NCBI RefSeq assembly: GCF_009547075.1
Contig: NZ_WIPH01000007.1
Location: forward strand, 51,137-115,136
Direction of reading: 5' to 3'
Length of the DNA: 64,000 nt
DNA from: Gluconobacter aidae
GTDB taxonomy: Bacteria; Pseudomonadota; Alphaproteobacteria; Acetobacterales; Acetobacteraceae
In this document: piece by piece, positions 31,604 to 35,772 of the stretch
Layout: each line of letters begins with the position of its first letter
Position numbering within the stretch: the first letter of the stretch is position 1
Translations under genes and position numbers: made by a program
The notes under the pieces: model-generated
What the model saw: the letters and a program-made list of their open reading frames with translations, nothing else
The model's database searches: none
Told to the model about the DNA's origin: nothing

Positions 31604-32962
31604 ATGGCCATCAAAAGGTCTCTGTTCGGTACTGATGGCATTCGGGGAACGGCTAATACCGCGCCCATGACGGTCGAGATCGCACAGAGGCTGGGGCAGG
31701 CCGCCGGCCTGTATTTCATGCGCAGTCAGAACCGCCGGCACAGCGTCGTGCTCGGCAAGGATACGCGCCTTTCGGGCTATATGCTGGAATGCGCCCTGGT
31801 CGCAGGCTTTCTGTCGGCCGGGATGGACGTCATTCTGGTCGGACCGCTGCCCACGCCCGCCATTGCCATGCTGACGCGCTCCCTCCGGGCGGATCTGGGT
31901 GTGATGGTCTCGGCATCGCATAATCCCTTTACCGATAACGGCATCAAACTGTTCGGACCGGACGGTTTCAAGCTTTCTGACGAAGTGGAAGGCGAGATCG
32001 AGGATCTGATGTCACAGGACCTGTCCGCGCGACTGGCATCCCCGGCGCAGATTGGCCGGGCGTCCCGTCTGACGGATGCGGCCGGACGGTATATCGAGAA
32101 TGCGAAAGCCTCTTTTCCGCGTGGCCTGCGTCTGGATGGCCTGAAGATTGTCATCGACTGTGCCAATGGATCGGCCTATCGCGTGGCGCCCACGGCCTTG
32201 TGGGAGCTTGGTGCGGATGTCATCAAGATCGGCTGTTCACCTGATGGATTGAATATCAACGATGGCGTGGGATCAACGCATCCTGAAACGCTGTGCGCAG
32301 CCGTCAGGGAGCATGGTGCGGATTTCGGTATTGCGCTGGATGGTGATGCGGACCGTGTCCTGATTGCGGATGAGAATGGCAATCTTGTGGATGGAGACCA
32401 GATCATTGGTCTGATTGCTGCCTTCTGGAAACAGCATGACCGGTTGCGGGGCAATACCGTGGTGACGACCGTCATGTCCAATATGGGACTGGAAAAGGCC
32501 CTGGCGGAGAATGGTCTCGAACTTCAGCGCACGGCGGTCGGTGATCGCTATGTTGTCGAGCGGATGCGGGAAATCGGGGCCAATCTGGGCGGCGAGCAGT
32601 CTGGTCACATGGTCCTGTCAGACTATGCCACCACGGGCGATGGCCTGATTGCTGCATTGCAGGTCCTTGCTGTCTCCGTTGAGACCAAGCGGCCTGCCAG
32701 CGAAATCTGCCGTTTCTTCACGCCCTATCCGCAGATTCTGAAAAATGTCCGCTATTCAGGAACCAGCCCGATGGGCAGTCCGGATCTCGCCGCGGCCAAG
32801 GCGTGGGCAGACGAGCGGCTGGCCGGAAGTGGCCGTCTTGTCCTGCGGGCAAGCGGGACTGAACCGCTGATCCGTGTCATGGCCGAGGCGCAGGATGAGG
32901 CGTTGGTGCATGAGGTTGTGGACCATGTCTGTGATGTCATCCGCGCGATCGCACACGCCTGA
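31604..32962 (+). CDS. glmM: Phosphoglucosamine mutase GlmM
   Basis: GlmM interconverts glucosamine-6-phosphate and glucosamine-1-phosphate on the way to UDP-GlcNAc, peptidoglycan and lipopolysaccharide. The 452-residue protein has the N-terminal FGTDGIRG block, the phosphoserine loop SASHNPF (active Ser about 105), the metal loop DGDADR and the sugar-binding GEQSGH. The phosphate-binding [12 protein letters not shown] is near the end. A terminator hairpin lies just upstream. Confidence 0.97.
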
Positions 32963-33038: not shown

Positions 33039-33782
33039 TCAGACGGCTGCGCCGACGGCGGGAAGAGTGTTTTTGGAAGGAACGTCTGTTGCGGCGGGGA
33101 TCTCCGCGGTGTCATCTTCGCGCAGGATGTAACCGCGTCCCCAGACCGTAGCGATCAGGTTCCCCGCACCGACATTCTGGAGTTTTCGGCGCAGCTTGCA
33201 GATGAAGACGTCGATGATCTTCATTTCCGGCTCGTCAATGCCACCATACAGGTGGTTGAGAAATGCATCCTTGGTCAGGACGGATCCTTTGCGGATCACC
33301 AGCAGTTCGAGAATGGCGTATTCCTTGCCCGTCAGGTGCAGGGGAGCGCCGTCGACCGTGACGTTCTTGCCATTCAGGTCCAGTTCCAGGCTACCGATGC
33401 GAAGCTTCGGTTCGGCAAAGCCCCGCGAGCGCCGCATGACGGCCTGAAGGCGGGCGACCAGTTCACCTGCGTCGTAAGGCTTGGTCATGTAATCATCCGC
33501 GCCCACGGAGAAAGCCCGGATTTTTGCCTGAGGCCGCAGCAGGGCGGACAGGACGAGGATGGGCGTCGTGATACGCGCGGCCCGGGCGCGGCGAATGACT
33601 TCGTAGCCTTCAAGGTCGTTCAGCATCAGTTCGAGCACAACCACATCGTAGTCGTAATGGCGAAGCATCTCGATGGCTTCTTCGCCAGACGGCGTATGGT
33701 CTACGGTGAAAGAGGCTGTCCGCAGGACCTGGGACAGTGTGGCGGCGGCTGACTGATCGCTTTCGACAAGAAGAATACGCAT
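33039..33782 (-). CDS. ctrA: Cell-cycle response regulator CtrA with a substituted phosphoacceptor (D51E, D8S)
   Basis: The 247-residue OmpR-type regulator is clearly CtrA: LTGKEYAILELL, FLNHLYGGIDEPEMKIIDVF and VWGRGYILR are near identical to the Caulobacter DNA-binding domain. CtrA controls cell division, flagellar and replication genes in alphaproteobacteria. The receiver aligns without gaps to Caulobacter CtrA, but residue 51, the phosphorylated Asp, is Glu (VVVLELML), and Asp8 of the metal-binding pocket is Ser (VESD). Lys of YMTKPY is kept. The ATG at 33782 follows GGGAG; the frame continues 54 residues upstream without similarity. The C-terminal tail after the DNA-binding domain is about 25 residues. 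The gene is divergent from fliI. Confidence 0.95.
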   Translation of the reverse strand: MRILLVESDQSAAATLSQVLRTASFTVDHTPSGEEAIEMLRHYDYDVVVLELMLNDLEGYEVIRRARAARITTPILVLSALLRPQAKIRAFSVGADDYMTKPYDAGELVARLQAVMRRSRGFAEPKLRIGSLELDLNGKNVTVDGAPLHLTGKEYAILELLVIRKGSVLTKDAFLNHLYGGIDEPEMKIIDVFICKLRRKLQNVGAGNLIATVWGRGYILREDDTAEIPAATDVPSKNTLPAVGAAV

Positions 33783-33894: not shown

Positions 33895-33910
33895 GTTAGG
33901 GTTCTCTTAA
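33895..33910 (-). promoter_or_regulatory. Near-consensus CtrA binding site in the ctrA-fliI intergenic region
   Basis: On the minus strand the sequence reads TTAA-GAGAACC-CTAAC, which matches the full CtrA box TTAA-N7-TTAAC at eight of nine positions. It lies 113 bases upstream of the ctrA ATG and 64 bases upstream of fliI. On the ctrA side a possible -10 element (AATAAT within 33870-33880) follows about 18 bases later, so the box could overlap the -35 region, as at the autoregulated Caulobacter ctrA promoter. Confidence 0.6.
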
Positions 33911-33973: not shown

Positions 33974-35326
33974 ATGGATGACTACGACAGACTGCTTGAA
34001 AGGCTTTCGAATCTCACCTGCAACTGGGTTATAGGGAGTGTTAAAGACGTTATCGGTCTGTGCCTGACCGTTATCGGACTCGAAGGTTTTATTACGATTG
34101 GAGATCGAGTCGCGGTAATGGCGCGGGATGGTCGTATCGTGCAATCGGAGGTTGTTGGGTTTCAGGGTAACGTCGCGCGACTTATGTCTTTTGGTCCACT
34201 GGATGGGATTGGGCCGGGATGTGAGGCCAGGATTCCGCTGAACCGTCATGATGGTGGTCTTGGCGTCAACGAAAACTGGCTGGGCCGCGTGGTGGACCCG
34301 CTGGGAGAGCCGATCGACGGGAAGGGGCCTCTGTTTCCATCGTTTGAGCGGCAGCCGGTTCAGTGTCCTCCGCCCAATGCCGCAAGCCGGGCGCGGCTTG
34401 GCGATCGTATCGACCTCGGGGTCCGGGCGCTTGATACTTTCACGACCTGCCGGCGGGGGCAGAGGCTCGGGCTTTTCGCAGGATCGGGCGTCGGGAAATC
34501 CACATTGCTCTCCATGTTGGCGCGCGGTGCGGATTGTGATGTCGCCGTGATTTCGCTTGTGGGCGAGCGTGGGCGTGAGGTGCGGGAGTTCATCGAGGAT
34601 GATCTCGGGCCGGAAGGGCTGGCGCGTAGCGTGCTGGTGATAGCGACTTCGGACTCACCGCCACTGATGCGTCGCGAAGCCGCCCTGTCCGCCATGGCCA
34701 TCGCGGAATATTTCCGGAACCAGGGCAAATCGGTCCTGCTGCTGATGGACAGCGTGACGCGGTTTTGCATGGCGCTGCGTGAAATCGGTCTGTCAGCAGG
34801 AGAGCCCCCCGCGACACGGGGGTATCCGCCTTCGGTCTTTGCCGAGTTGCCGCGTCTTCTCGAGCGGGCGGGCCCGGGCTATGCCGATCAGGGCATGATC
34901 ACGGCGCTTTTCACGGTTCTTGTGGAAGGGGATGACCAGAATGAGCCGGTTGCGGATGCCGTGCGTGGCATTCTGGACGGCCATATCATTCTTGATCGCA
35001 AGATCGGCGAGCAGGGGCGTTATCCTGCCATTGATGTTCTGCGTTCCCTGTCGCGTGCGGTCCCGGGATGTAATTCGCCTGAGGAAAACGCTCTGACGCG
35101 ACGCGCACGGGCCGCGATGGCGACCTATCAGCGGATGGCGGACATGATCCGGCTGGGGGCGTACAAGCCCGGAACGGATCGTGAGGTGGATGAAGCCATT
35201 GCCCTGATGCCGAAGCTGAACGAATTCCTGTCTCAGGGGCGGAACGAACGCACCACGCGCGCCGAAGCCTTTGAGCAGCTGGCGCAGATCATGCAGGTGC
35301 CGCTGAAAAACCTGCCTCCTGAATGA
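33974..35326 (+). CDS. fliI: Flagellum-specific ATPase FliI
   Basis: FliI is the ATPase of the flagellar type III export apparatus. The 450-residue product has the F1-beta-like fold with Walker A AGSGVGKS (170-177), the conserved LVGERGREVREFIEDDL block and DSVTRFCMALREIGL. The family signature GEPPATRGYPPSVFAELPRLLERAG follows. It is divergent from ctrA and shares the intergenic region holding the CtrA box. The next gene looks like fliJ. No other flagellar genes are in the window, so the main flagellar clusters are elsewhere. Confidence 0.95.
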   Translation: MDDYDRLLERLSNLTCNWVIGSVKDVIGLCLTVIGLEGFITIGDRVAVMARDGRIVQSEVVGFQGNVARLMSFGPLDGIGPGCEARIPLNRHDGGLGVNENWLGRVVDPLGEPIDGKGPLFPSFERQPVQCPPPNAASRARLGDRIDLGVRALDTFTTCRRGQRLGLFAGSGVGKSTLLSMLARGADCDVAVISLVGERGREVREFIEDDLGPEGLARSVLVIATSDSPPLMRREAALSAMAIAEYFRNQGKSVLLLMDSVTRFCMALREIGLSAGEPPATRGYPPSVFAELPRLLERAGPGYADQGMITALFTVLVEGDDQNEPVADAVRGILDGHIILDRKIGEQGRYPAIDVLRSLSRAVPGCNSPEENALTRRARAAMATYQRMADMIRLGAYKPGTDREVDEAIALMPKLNEFLSQGRNERTTRAEAFEQLAQIMQVPLKNLPPE

Positions 35327-35346
35327 ATTGTAAAGGACCTCACATA

Positions 35347-35772
35347 ATGGAACGCTCTCCTCTCGAGACATTGATTATCCTGCGGGAGCAGGAACTTGAT
35401 CTTGTGGAACGCAGCTTTTCAGAGGCCGTGGCGCGAGAAACGGTAGCGGAAGAAAAACTGGCTGCCGCCCAGACAGAAATCCTGAACGAACAGCGAGCCG
35501 CGTCCAGCTCGACTGCGGATGATGGGGCCGTGGAAGCGTTCAGTCGCTGGCTTCCCGCCGGGCGACAGGCCGTTTTGGATGCTCGAGAGTGCTGTCGGGA
35601 AGCGGCGATGGATCGCGAGGCAGTGCGCGCAGCCCTAATCGCTGCCCGGGCAGCCATGGAGGCCGTCAGGACCTTGCGGGAAGAGCACAAGGAAGAGGAG
35701 CGGCAGGCTGACCTCAGAAAGGAACAGAACGCTCTGGATGAACTCGCTGTCCGTCAGTTCGGCAGGTCGTGA
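35347..35772 (+). CDS. fliJ: FliJ-like coiled-coil flagellar export protein
   Basis: The 141-residue protein is almost entirely alpha-helical and rich in Glu, Ala and Arg, with heptad-like patterns (REQELDLVERSFSEAVARET; EERQADLRKEQNALDEL) typical of FliJ, the stalk protein that couples FliI to the export gate. FliJ sequences are poorly conserved, so the call relies on coiled-coil character, length and position directly after fliI. The ATG at 35347 has AAGGA upstream; an ATG at 35323 overlapping the fliI stop is the alternative. Its 3' end overlaps the convergent hypothetical gene by 19 bases. Confidence 0.75.
   Translation: MERSPLETLIILREQELDLVERSFSEAVARETVAEEKLAAAQTEILNEQRAASSSTADDGAVEAFSRWLPAGRQAVLDARECCREAAMDREAVRAALIAARAAMEAVRTLREEHKEEERQADLRKEQNALDELAVRQFGRS

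What the first reader, a model, noticed from the sequence alone, without database searches (positions are those of the whole stretch)
33039..33782. CtrA with Glu at the phosphoacceptor position and a degraded acidic pocket
Seen: the codon for residue 51 is GAA (VVVLELML) where Caulobacter CtrA has Asp51, and residue 8 is Ser (VESD) where the pocket Asp is expected; the alignment needs no gaps and the DNA-binding domain is nearly identical. Known: in Caulobacter, changing Asp51 to Glu gives a phosphomimetic, constitutively active CtrA, and Asp8 helps hold the magnesium needed for phosphotransfer. Inference: this CtrA may work without phosphorylation by the CckA-ChpT relay, so control would shift to transcription, proteolysis or other partners. 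I do not know whether this has been described for the genus.
Basis: partly seen in the sequence, partly recalled or inferred. Interest (0 to 1): 0.8.

Follow-up and report, generated by a model that had tools for sequence, protein, structure and literature searches.

The report
Master regulator CtrA unplugged from phosphorelay
In Gluconobacter and many other acetic acid bacteria the master regulator CtrA has lost the amino acids needed to receive a phosphate, the go-between that would deliver it was not found and the kinase gene is gone from its usual place, so CtrA likely runs as a permanently 'phosphorylated-looking' regulator whose output would depend on how much of it is made.

Summary
Observation confirmed. 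The gene is on the minus strand (33782 to 33039): codon 8 is AGC (Ser), codon 51 GAA (Glu), and no second CtrA was found in its genome (Gluconobacter, near G. potus/G. oxydans). It is no local quirk: 26 of 26 genus-level genomes have E51 and S/N8, and 68 of 207 family CtrAs read have E51. ChpT was not detected in any of 7 genus genomes searched, and cckA is absent from its ancestral place after flhB: the window's genome has flhB, 202 bases, recA, where three canonical relatives have flhB-cckA-recA. In 173 scorable family genomes ChpT goes with D8+D51 (86 of 88) and its absence with a non-canonical pocket (73 of 85), mostly through one large clade. Some Acetobacter keep D8 with E51; other lineages carry Arg, His or Ala at 51. 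DNA-binding domain and CtrA-type boxes (ctrA/fliI, fliP operon, dprA) persist, and the receiver stays under purifying selection. Most likely a CtrA turned atypical, phosphorylation-independent regulator, E51 acting as built-in phosphomimetic. Relay loss rests on sequence searches; constitutive activity is inferred.

The parts
33039..33782 (-). ctrA coding sequence, 247 aa plus stop; receiver + winged-helix response regulator
   Evidence: translation; Pfam PF00072 80.0 bits and PF00486 72.8 bits; NCBIfam CtrA model NF045991 best hit, 326.6 bits, below its cut-off of 350
33447..33776 (-). receiver domain (residues 3-112), a pseudo-receiver by its residues
   Evidence: residues 8 and 51 not Asp
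33759..33761 (-). codon 8, AGC = Ser, where the Mg-binding Asp is expected
   Evidence: Asp in 4qpj_C and in 99% of 87 ChpT-bearing relatives
33630..33632 (-). codon 51, GAA = Glu, where the phosphoacceptor Asp is expected
   Evidence: Asp in 4qpj_C. All 87 ChpT-bearing relatives have Asp, but that set was chosen for D51; the one further ChpT-bearing CtrA with a known residue, G156, has Glu
33618..33620 (-). codon 55, AAC = Asn, where Pro is the rule in ChpT-bearing relatives
33546..33548 (-). codon 79, Ser, conserved active-site Ser/Thr, retained
33480..33482 (-). codon 101, Lys, conserved active-site Lys, retained
33123..33347 (-). DNA-binding domain (residues 146-220)
33896..33910 (.). predicted CtrA box, TTAG-N7-TTAA on + (TTAA-N7-CTAA in the ctrA direction), one mismatch, between ctrA and fliI; begins 128 bases before the ctrA start codon
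   Evidence: within one base of this distance in 22 of 26 genus genomes while the spacer changes (whose offsets count from the end of the start codon)
33974..35326 (+). fliI, flagellar export ATPase, divergent neighbour
   Evidence: PF00006, PF18269; ORF
35323..35772 (+). fliJ
   Evidence: PF02050; ORF
31604..32962 (+). glmM-like sugar-phosphate mutase, the neighbour downstream of ctrA here, where most canonical stretches opened have che genes
   Evidence: PF02878-PF02880; synteny

Best explanation
This is the CtrA orthologue of a Gluconobacter whose receiver lacks the Asp that accepts phosphate (Glu51) and the Asp that holds magnesium (Ser8), in a genome with no detectable chpT and no cckA at its ancestral site, so it likely acts as a phosphorylation-independent, constitutively active CtrA. 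Shown: the residues, their fixation in the genus, flhB directly followed by recA, no ChpT match, retention of the DNA-binding domain and of CtrA-type boxes, purifying selection on the receiver. Inferred: Glu51, with the retained Lys101 and Ser79, mimics phospho-Asp and favours the DNA-binding dimer; output is then set by the amount of protein (autoregulation at the box between ctrA and fliI, turnover) rather than by a phosphate signal. The states seen suggest that on the branch to Gluconobacter Glu51 came while D8 was still present (as in some Acetobacter and Ameyamaea today), then D8 was lost; other lineages lost D8 first or decayed further.
For: Residues. Genus: 26 of 26 E51. Family: 68 E51, 114 D51, 20 other, 5 undetermined of 207. 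ChpT: PF10090 matches 185 of 299 family genomes (174 over cut-off) and of 14 controls only Caulobacter, but 0 of 7 genus genomes. chpT lay within 7 kb of ctrA in 8 of 9 ChpT-bearing stretches opened, which I chose partly for that; that segment is not beside ctrA here. CckA: directly after flhB in 11 loci fetched as CckA matches and in 5 of 5 ChpT-bearing genomes opened by flhB, but in 0 of 25 others (21 without a ChpT match, 3 with only a weak one, G025 not searched). Three relatives (L126, L350, L354) show flhB-cckA-recA; 13 of the 25 show flhB-recA, with 202 bases between in G000 (genes by Pfam). In 173 genomes: ChpT+ 86 canonical, 2 not; ChpT- 12 canonical, 73 not. Receiver dN/dS median 0.044 vs 0.031 for the DNA-binding domain (crude). 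CtrA box before ctrA/fliI in 22 of 26, before the fliP operon in 3 of 3 species opened, before dprA in G000. Caulobacter D51E is used as a phosphomimetic (PMC12186491, passages); Glu is the commonest residue at the D position of pseudo-receivers and may bind the conserved T and K (PMC12632262, passages).
Against: No experiment. The association rests largely on one big clade: the phylogeny-aware pair test had 4 independent pairs and no signal. Glu51 is not kept everywhere in the clade: Arg, His, Ala, Ser or Asn occur, and two groups have D51 without D8, so a charge at 51 may matter less than assumed. G156 has E51 with D8 and a ChpT match. Asp->Glu fails to activate some response regulators (PMC4395418, passages). 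Exact TTAA-N7-TTAA is not enriched genome-wide (11 sites against 15 for the reversed control). ChpT is small and divergent, so an undetected HPt cannot be ruled out. Absence of cckA is shown at one site only: G227, which has ChpT, carries its best CckA match on another contig than its flhB, the window's genome has two hybrid kinases 35-39% identical to CckA, and Brilli 2010 lists cckA as present in organisms of this group (passage).
Confidence: 0.72

Rival explanations
1. Relaxed pseudo-receiver: once the relay was lost the phosphorylation pocket simply decayed; Glu51 is one tolerated state, and activity comes from an intrinsic dimer interface or a partner, not from phosphomimicry.
For: Other CtrAs without ChpT have R, H, A, S or N at 51, or D51 with N8 or P8 nested among E51 relatives; P55 and G80 are lost in most E51 CtrAs too; ChxR, also Glu at this site, kept binding DNA after change to Asp or Ala (PMC4395418, passage).
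Against: Within the genus E51 is 26 of 26 with synonymous changes, receiver dN/dS is about 0.04, and K101 (25 of 26) and S79 (26 of 26) are kept.
Confidence: 0.22
2. A replacement input: another kinase or phosphotransferase modifies this receiver at another residue (for example D9 or D56), or a ligand or protein binds the pocket.
For: D9 and D56 are retained in 25 and 26 of 26; hybrid kinases with a match reaching the CckA receiver region exist in G000, G011 and G025.
Against: None of these kinases is at the cckA site; D8 and D51 are both needed for normal phosphotransfer chemistry (established knowledge); no ChpT was found.
Confidence: 0.05
3. A canonical relay exists but was missed, and Glu51 is a recent or erroneous change.
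For: ChpT is a small divergent protein; draft genome with 127 contigs; earlier authors listed cckA in this group (PMC2877005, passage).
Against: G000 is 99.99% complete; 26 of 26 genomes agree on E51; flhB and recA abut in G000 and relatives; one- or two-contig E51 genomes (G050, G014) also lack ChpT matches.
Confidence: 0.02

Closest known systems
Caulobacter/Brucella CtrA under the CckA-ChpT phosphorelay
   Same: Orthologue by sequence, gapless receiver, DNA-binding domain and CtrA-type box kept, beside fliI.
   Different: No D51, no D8; chpT not found and cckA not at its site; C-terminal AA/VA/LA end mostly lost (14 of 66 E51 CtrAs against 93 of 113 D51 ones).
Caulobacter ctrA D51E laboratory allele (phosphomimetic)
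   Same: Same substitution at the same residue (PMC12186491, passages).
   Different: Natural, fixed in the genus, combined with loss of D8 and of the relay.
ChxR of Chlamydia trachomatis and other aspartate-less receivers (ALR, pseudo-receivers)
   Same: OmpR/PhoB regulator with Glu at the acceptor position (PMC4395418, PMC12632262, passages).
   Different: Derived from a known master regulator whose ancestral relay can be seen in relatives; intermediate states survive.
Degenerate CtrA circuits of 'cluster D' (Brilli 2010) and of Rhodospirillales (Tomasch 2021)
   Same: Those surveys already reported ctrA without chpT, and chpT, cckA and divL in only 27-36% of Rhodospirillales genomes against 72-82% for ctrA, gcrA and ccrM (PMC2877005, PMC8116508, passages).
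   Different: Word finds in Brilli gave 0 for D51, aspartate and receiver; the Tomasch passages suggest lower selection or hard-to-find homologues. Brilli lists cckA as present in the group; here the flhB-recA junction speaks against it.

Membership tests
CtrA (by descent) | REC + Trans_reg_C architecture | tested here: met
CtrA (by descent) | Best match to CtrA rather than other OmpR-type regulators | tested here: met
   best NCBIfam model by far, best solved receiver 4qpj_C, gapless; genome paralogues at most 37% identical
CtrA (by descent) | Curated NCBIfam CtrA cut-off (NF045991, 350 bits) | tested here: not met
   326.6 bits; G. morbifer 321, A. nitrogenifigens 351.9, four relatives with D8 and no E51 352.8-371.2
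CtrA (by descent) | Conserved TTAA-N7-TTAA-type box at own or flagellar promoters | tested here: met
   22 of 26 genus genomes at one place before ctrA, up to one mismatch; fliP operon 3 of 3. Family-wide only 75 of 198 (31 expected)
Phosphorelay-controlled CtrA | Phosphoacceptor Asp51 | tested here: not met
   Glu
Phosphorelay-controlled CtrA | Mg-binding Asp8 | tested here: not met
   Ser
Phosphorelay-controlled CtrA | chpT in the genome | tested here: not met
   no PF10090 match
Phosphorelay-controlled CtrA | cckA in the genome | tested here: inconclusive
   not at its ancestral site; hybrid kinases 35-39% identical exist elsewhere
Aspartate-less / pseudo-receiver regulators | Receiver lacking Asp at the acceptor position and other pocket residues | tested here: met
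Aspartate-less / pseudo-receiver regulators | Activity without phosphorylation | not testable with these tools
   needs biochemistry

The most novel reading that the evidence does not exclude
A whole branch of bacteria, the acetic acid bacteria, has adopted the laboratory phosphomimetic CtrA mutation, lost cckA (leaving flhB next to recA) and chpT, and turned the alphaproteobacterial master regulator into a hard-wired, dosage-controlled factor; living relatives preserve the stages, from E51 with D8 intact to receivers with Arg, His or Ala at 51 that keep only the DNA-binding half.
Probability: 0.6. Interest if true: 0.78.

Novelty: new variant of a known kind. Interest (0 to 1): 0.68.

Why it matters
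CtrA phosphorylation is the textbook way alphaproteobacteria tie motility and cell cycle to signals. Earlier surveys left open why Rhodospirillales keep ctrA without chpT or cckA. A fixed D51E with loss of the relay offers a direct, testable answer, a natural counterpart of a much-used laboratory mutant, and an evolutionary series for how a two-component system is taken apart while its regulator survives. It also warns against transferring Caulobacter-type CtrA control to Gluconobacter, Asaia and their kin.

Tried and rejected
Tried: (1) CckA by its catalytic domain alone: 277 of 299 genomes matched, so it cannot tell orthologues from similar kinases; replaced by the site after flhB. (2) Full-length CckA in 50 genomes: 35 matched; in genomes without ChpT the matches were to hybrid kinases 33-45% identical; not taken as CckA, which is a judgement. 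(3) SciP (PF06627) and RcdA (PF07323) in 54 genomes each: 0 of 54 over cut-off, canonical relatives included (one sub-cut-off SciP match, G062), so they say nothing about E51. (4) Phylogeny-aware pair test: 4 pairs, no power. (5) Genome-wide CtrA-box enrichment: none. (6) Window-wide box scan: 4 against 1.35 expected, 5 of 100 shuffles as many; not significant by itself. (7) Papers: searches listed no paper that by title, abstract start or passage read describes a non-Asp acceptor in CtrA of acetic acid bacteria (one search listed none at all); only openly licensed PMC papers are held. Passages were read in PMC8116508, PMC9756655, PMC2877005, PMC12733265, PMC4395418, PMC12632262, PMC12186491 and PMC4426382; PMC13214618 and PMC3960148 held none of the words asked for. 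Rejected: sequencing error, second CtrA, pseudogene (intact ORF, dN/dS). Not done: structure prediction; DivK and CpdR were not searched by a model.

Limits and rows dropped: the 207 genomes are those that I opened, not all with a match (247 of 299). The 173 leave out 19 genus genomes not in the ChpT draw, genomes with ChpT matches between 1e-4 and 1e-3, those with residue 8 or 51 undetermined, and rows with long gaps. One search lists only 20 of its 114 non-matching genomes; the rest were taken as non-matching because its match table holds all 185 matches. dN/dS used 212 (receiver) and 218 (DNA-binding domain) of 325 pairs. flhB loci were capped at 30 of 36 genomes with a match. Genes named from recalled sequence, not by a call: tilS, fliO, cheB, cheW and cheY. 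Pfam-checked: fliI, fliJ, glmM and ftsH of the window, FlhB and RecA of G000, and one relative's cheA, cheR and chpT.

Full report
What is there. The ORF is on the minus strand, 33782 to 33039, 247 aa. Codon 8 is AGC (Ser) and codon 51 GAA (Glu); codons 79 (Ser) and 101 (Lys) are intact. It carries a receiver and a winged-helix domain, aligns without a gap to the solved CtrA receiver 4qpj_C, which has Asp at both places, and stands back to back with fliI-fliJ. Its best NCBIfam model is CtrA, at 326.6 bits, below the cut-off of 350; four relatives with D8 and no E51 pass (352.8-371.2), A. nitrogenifigens just passes (351.9), G. morbifer does not (321). The genome (G000, 99.99% complete) has no second CtrA: the next of 12 other matches is 36% identical, and the 7 opened keep both Asp residues.

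Where it comes from. Named genomes place the window in Gluconobacter: nearest CtrAs are G. potus (95%) and G. oxydans (94%). All 19 named Gluconobacter and Neokomagataea loci (L270-L288) have S8 and E51. In the genus set 26 of 26 have E51, 25 S8 and 1 N8; codon 51 is GAA in 23 and GAG in 3. E51 is also in the one locus each of Tanticharoenia, Brytella, Swaminathania, Acidomonas and Saccharibacter, in 5 of 7 Asaia (2 undetermined) and in 4 of 7 loci named Bombella (2 have Ala, 1 undetermined). In Acetobacter musti, A. fallax and A. nitrogenifigens E51 stands with D8 still present; Ameyamaea (P0038) likewise.

Across the family. One CtrA was read in each of 207 genomes (genus included): 114 have D51, 68 E51, 20 another residue (R, H, A, N, S), 5 undetermined; 101 have D8 and D51. 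So Glu is the main but not the only departure. Some lineages have lost D8 while keeping D51 (g54: H, T or N; g56/g71: G or S).

The relay. ChpT (PF10090) matches 185 of 299 family genomes, 174 over cut-off, and of 14 control genomes only Caulobacter; none of the 7 genus genomes in the draw matches. In 8 of 9 ChpT-bearing stretches opened (chosen partly for this) chpT lies within 7 kb of ctrA; in G227 it heads a run with cheA and cheR that reaches ctrA, while in G257 it lies on the fliI side. Beside ctrA in the window there is glmM, then ftsH, and the genome's chemotaxis genes lie on another contig. CckA sits directly after flhB in 11 loci fetched as CckA matches. Of 30 flhB loci opened, 5 of 5 from ChpT-bearing genomes have cckA there and 0 of 25 others do (21 without a ChpT match, 3 with only a weak one, G025 not searched for ChpT). 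The order flhB-cckA-recA is seen in 3 relatives (G063, G189, G257), and flhB-recA without cckA in 13 of the 25. In the window's genome 202 bases separate flhB and recA. This shows loss at that site. Whether a CckA-like kinase elsewhere could stand in is open: G000 has two hybrid kinases 35-39% identical to CckA, ChpT-bearing G227 has its best CckA match on another contig than flhB, and Brilli 2010 lists cckA as present in organisms of this group.

How tight is the link. In 173 scorable genomes ChpT presence goes with D8+D51 in 86 of 88 and absence with a non-canonical pocket in 73 of 85 (Fisher p 3e-33, not corrected for relatedness). Exceptions: G156 (E51, D8, ChpT) and G221 (E8, D51, ChpT); and 12 canonical CtrAs without ChpT, 10 of them in draft genomes outside the acetic acid clade and two (G055, G038) inside it. 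On the CtrA tree of 204 rows at least 11 changes of E51, 11 of ChpT and 10 of D8 are needed (there genus genomes not searched for ChpT count as lacking it, and weak matches as absence). Most of the signal is one big ChpT-less clade; g81 (H8, E51, no ChpT; 2 genomes) and g54 (D8 lost, no ChpT) look like separate cases. A test on independent pairs had 4 pairs and no power. The tree is of the gene itself, by a quick method, with long branches and no inferred root, so the order of steps is a reading of the states, not a result.

Is the protein still used. Receiver dN/dS in the genus is about 0.044 and that of the DNA-binding domain 0.031 (crude). Of positions conserved in ChpT-bearing relatives, 58 of 63 in the DNA-binding domain and 50 of 61 in the receiver are unchanged; positions that differ between the two groups include 8, 14, 51, 55 and 80. 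A CtrA-type box (TTAA-N7-TTAA with at most one mismatch) begins 127-129 bases before ctrA in 22 of 26 genus genomes while its spacer varies; in the whole family such a box is found in 75 of 198 upstream stretches against 31 expected from shuffles. Exact boxes precede the fliP operon in all three species opened (Pfam for G000, matching sequence for the others), dprA in the window's genome, and a PAS-GGDEF-EAL gene in G004 and, by similar sequence, G012 (G. cerevisiae and G. potus). Exact boxes are not enriched overall: 11 against 15 for the reversed control. In 10 of 46 genomes no flhB was found although a CtrA or CtrA-like gene is there, so flagellar export need not be its only use.

Mechanism. 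Shown by sequence: acceptor and magnesium residues gone, relay genes not found as said, rest of the protein under selection, DNA sites kept. Inferred: Glu51 with Lys101 and Ser79 imitates phospho-Asp. This rests on the D51E allele of Caulobacter (PMC12186491, passages) and on the general view of pseudo-receivers (PMC12632262 and PMC4395418, passages), which also warn that Asp->Glu is not always activating and that in ChxR the Glu can be replaced without loss of binding. Control by amount is a further inference; the altered C-terminus (AA, VA or LA ends in 93 of 113 D51 but 14 of 66 E51 CtrAs, a grouping of mine) suggests that turnover changed as well.

Known and new. Brilli 2010 and Tomasch 2021 reported missing chpT, and Tomasch missing cckA, in Rhodospirillales (passages); neither is seen to mention residue 51 in what was read, and word finds for D51, aspartate and receiver in Brilli gave 0. 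The searches listed no report of E51 CtrA in this group. I file it as a new variant of a known kind: a CtrA that has become an atypical response regulator.

Noticed in passing
L161, L163, L164, L167-L169, L171-L173, L175, L176, L178 (genus codes g68, g96): CtrA relatives with Arg or His at 51 and no Lys at 101, on long branches: receivers decayed well beyond E51 while the DNA-binding half is kept. The genera could not be named.
   Followed up: partly
genomes G033, G097, G165, G158, G125, G094, G071, G038, G065, G236: A CtrA or CtrA-like gene is present although no flhB was found, so CtrA may outlive flagellar export in several lineages.
   Followed up: partly
L326 (Bombella dulcis), L324 (Asaia platycodi): The best single-frame ctrA match covers only the later part of the gene; the receiver part seems disrupted in these records (real or assembly).
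   Followed up: no
L323 (uncultured alphaproteobacterium BRZ_DV bin2): A CtrA relative not named as an acetic acid bacterium with Ser at both 8 and 51, possibly another pseudo-receiver CtrA.
   Followed up: no
L087:2514-6001 (G000:C40): Two kinase genes side by side, the second a hybrid with an N-terminal receiver and a 685-aa open frame, also in G011 and G025; function unknown.
   Followed up: partly
receiver position 98: Tyr in 65 of 68 E51 CtrAs against Phe in 77 of 101 canonical ones: the aromatic next to the switch changed together with E51.
   Followed up: partly
L414:1501-1515: Exact CtrA box directly before dprA in the window's genome; similar exact sites are listed in two other Gluconobacter genomes but were not opened.
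   Followed up: partly
G156 (L203): Lone E51 CtrA with D8 and a ChpT match, in a draft genome: either an early stage or a variant under an intact relay.
   Followed up: no
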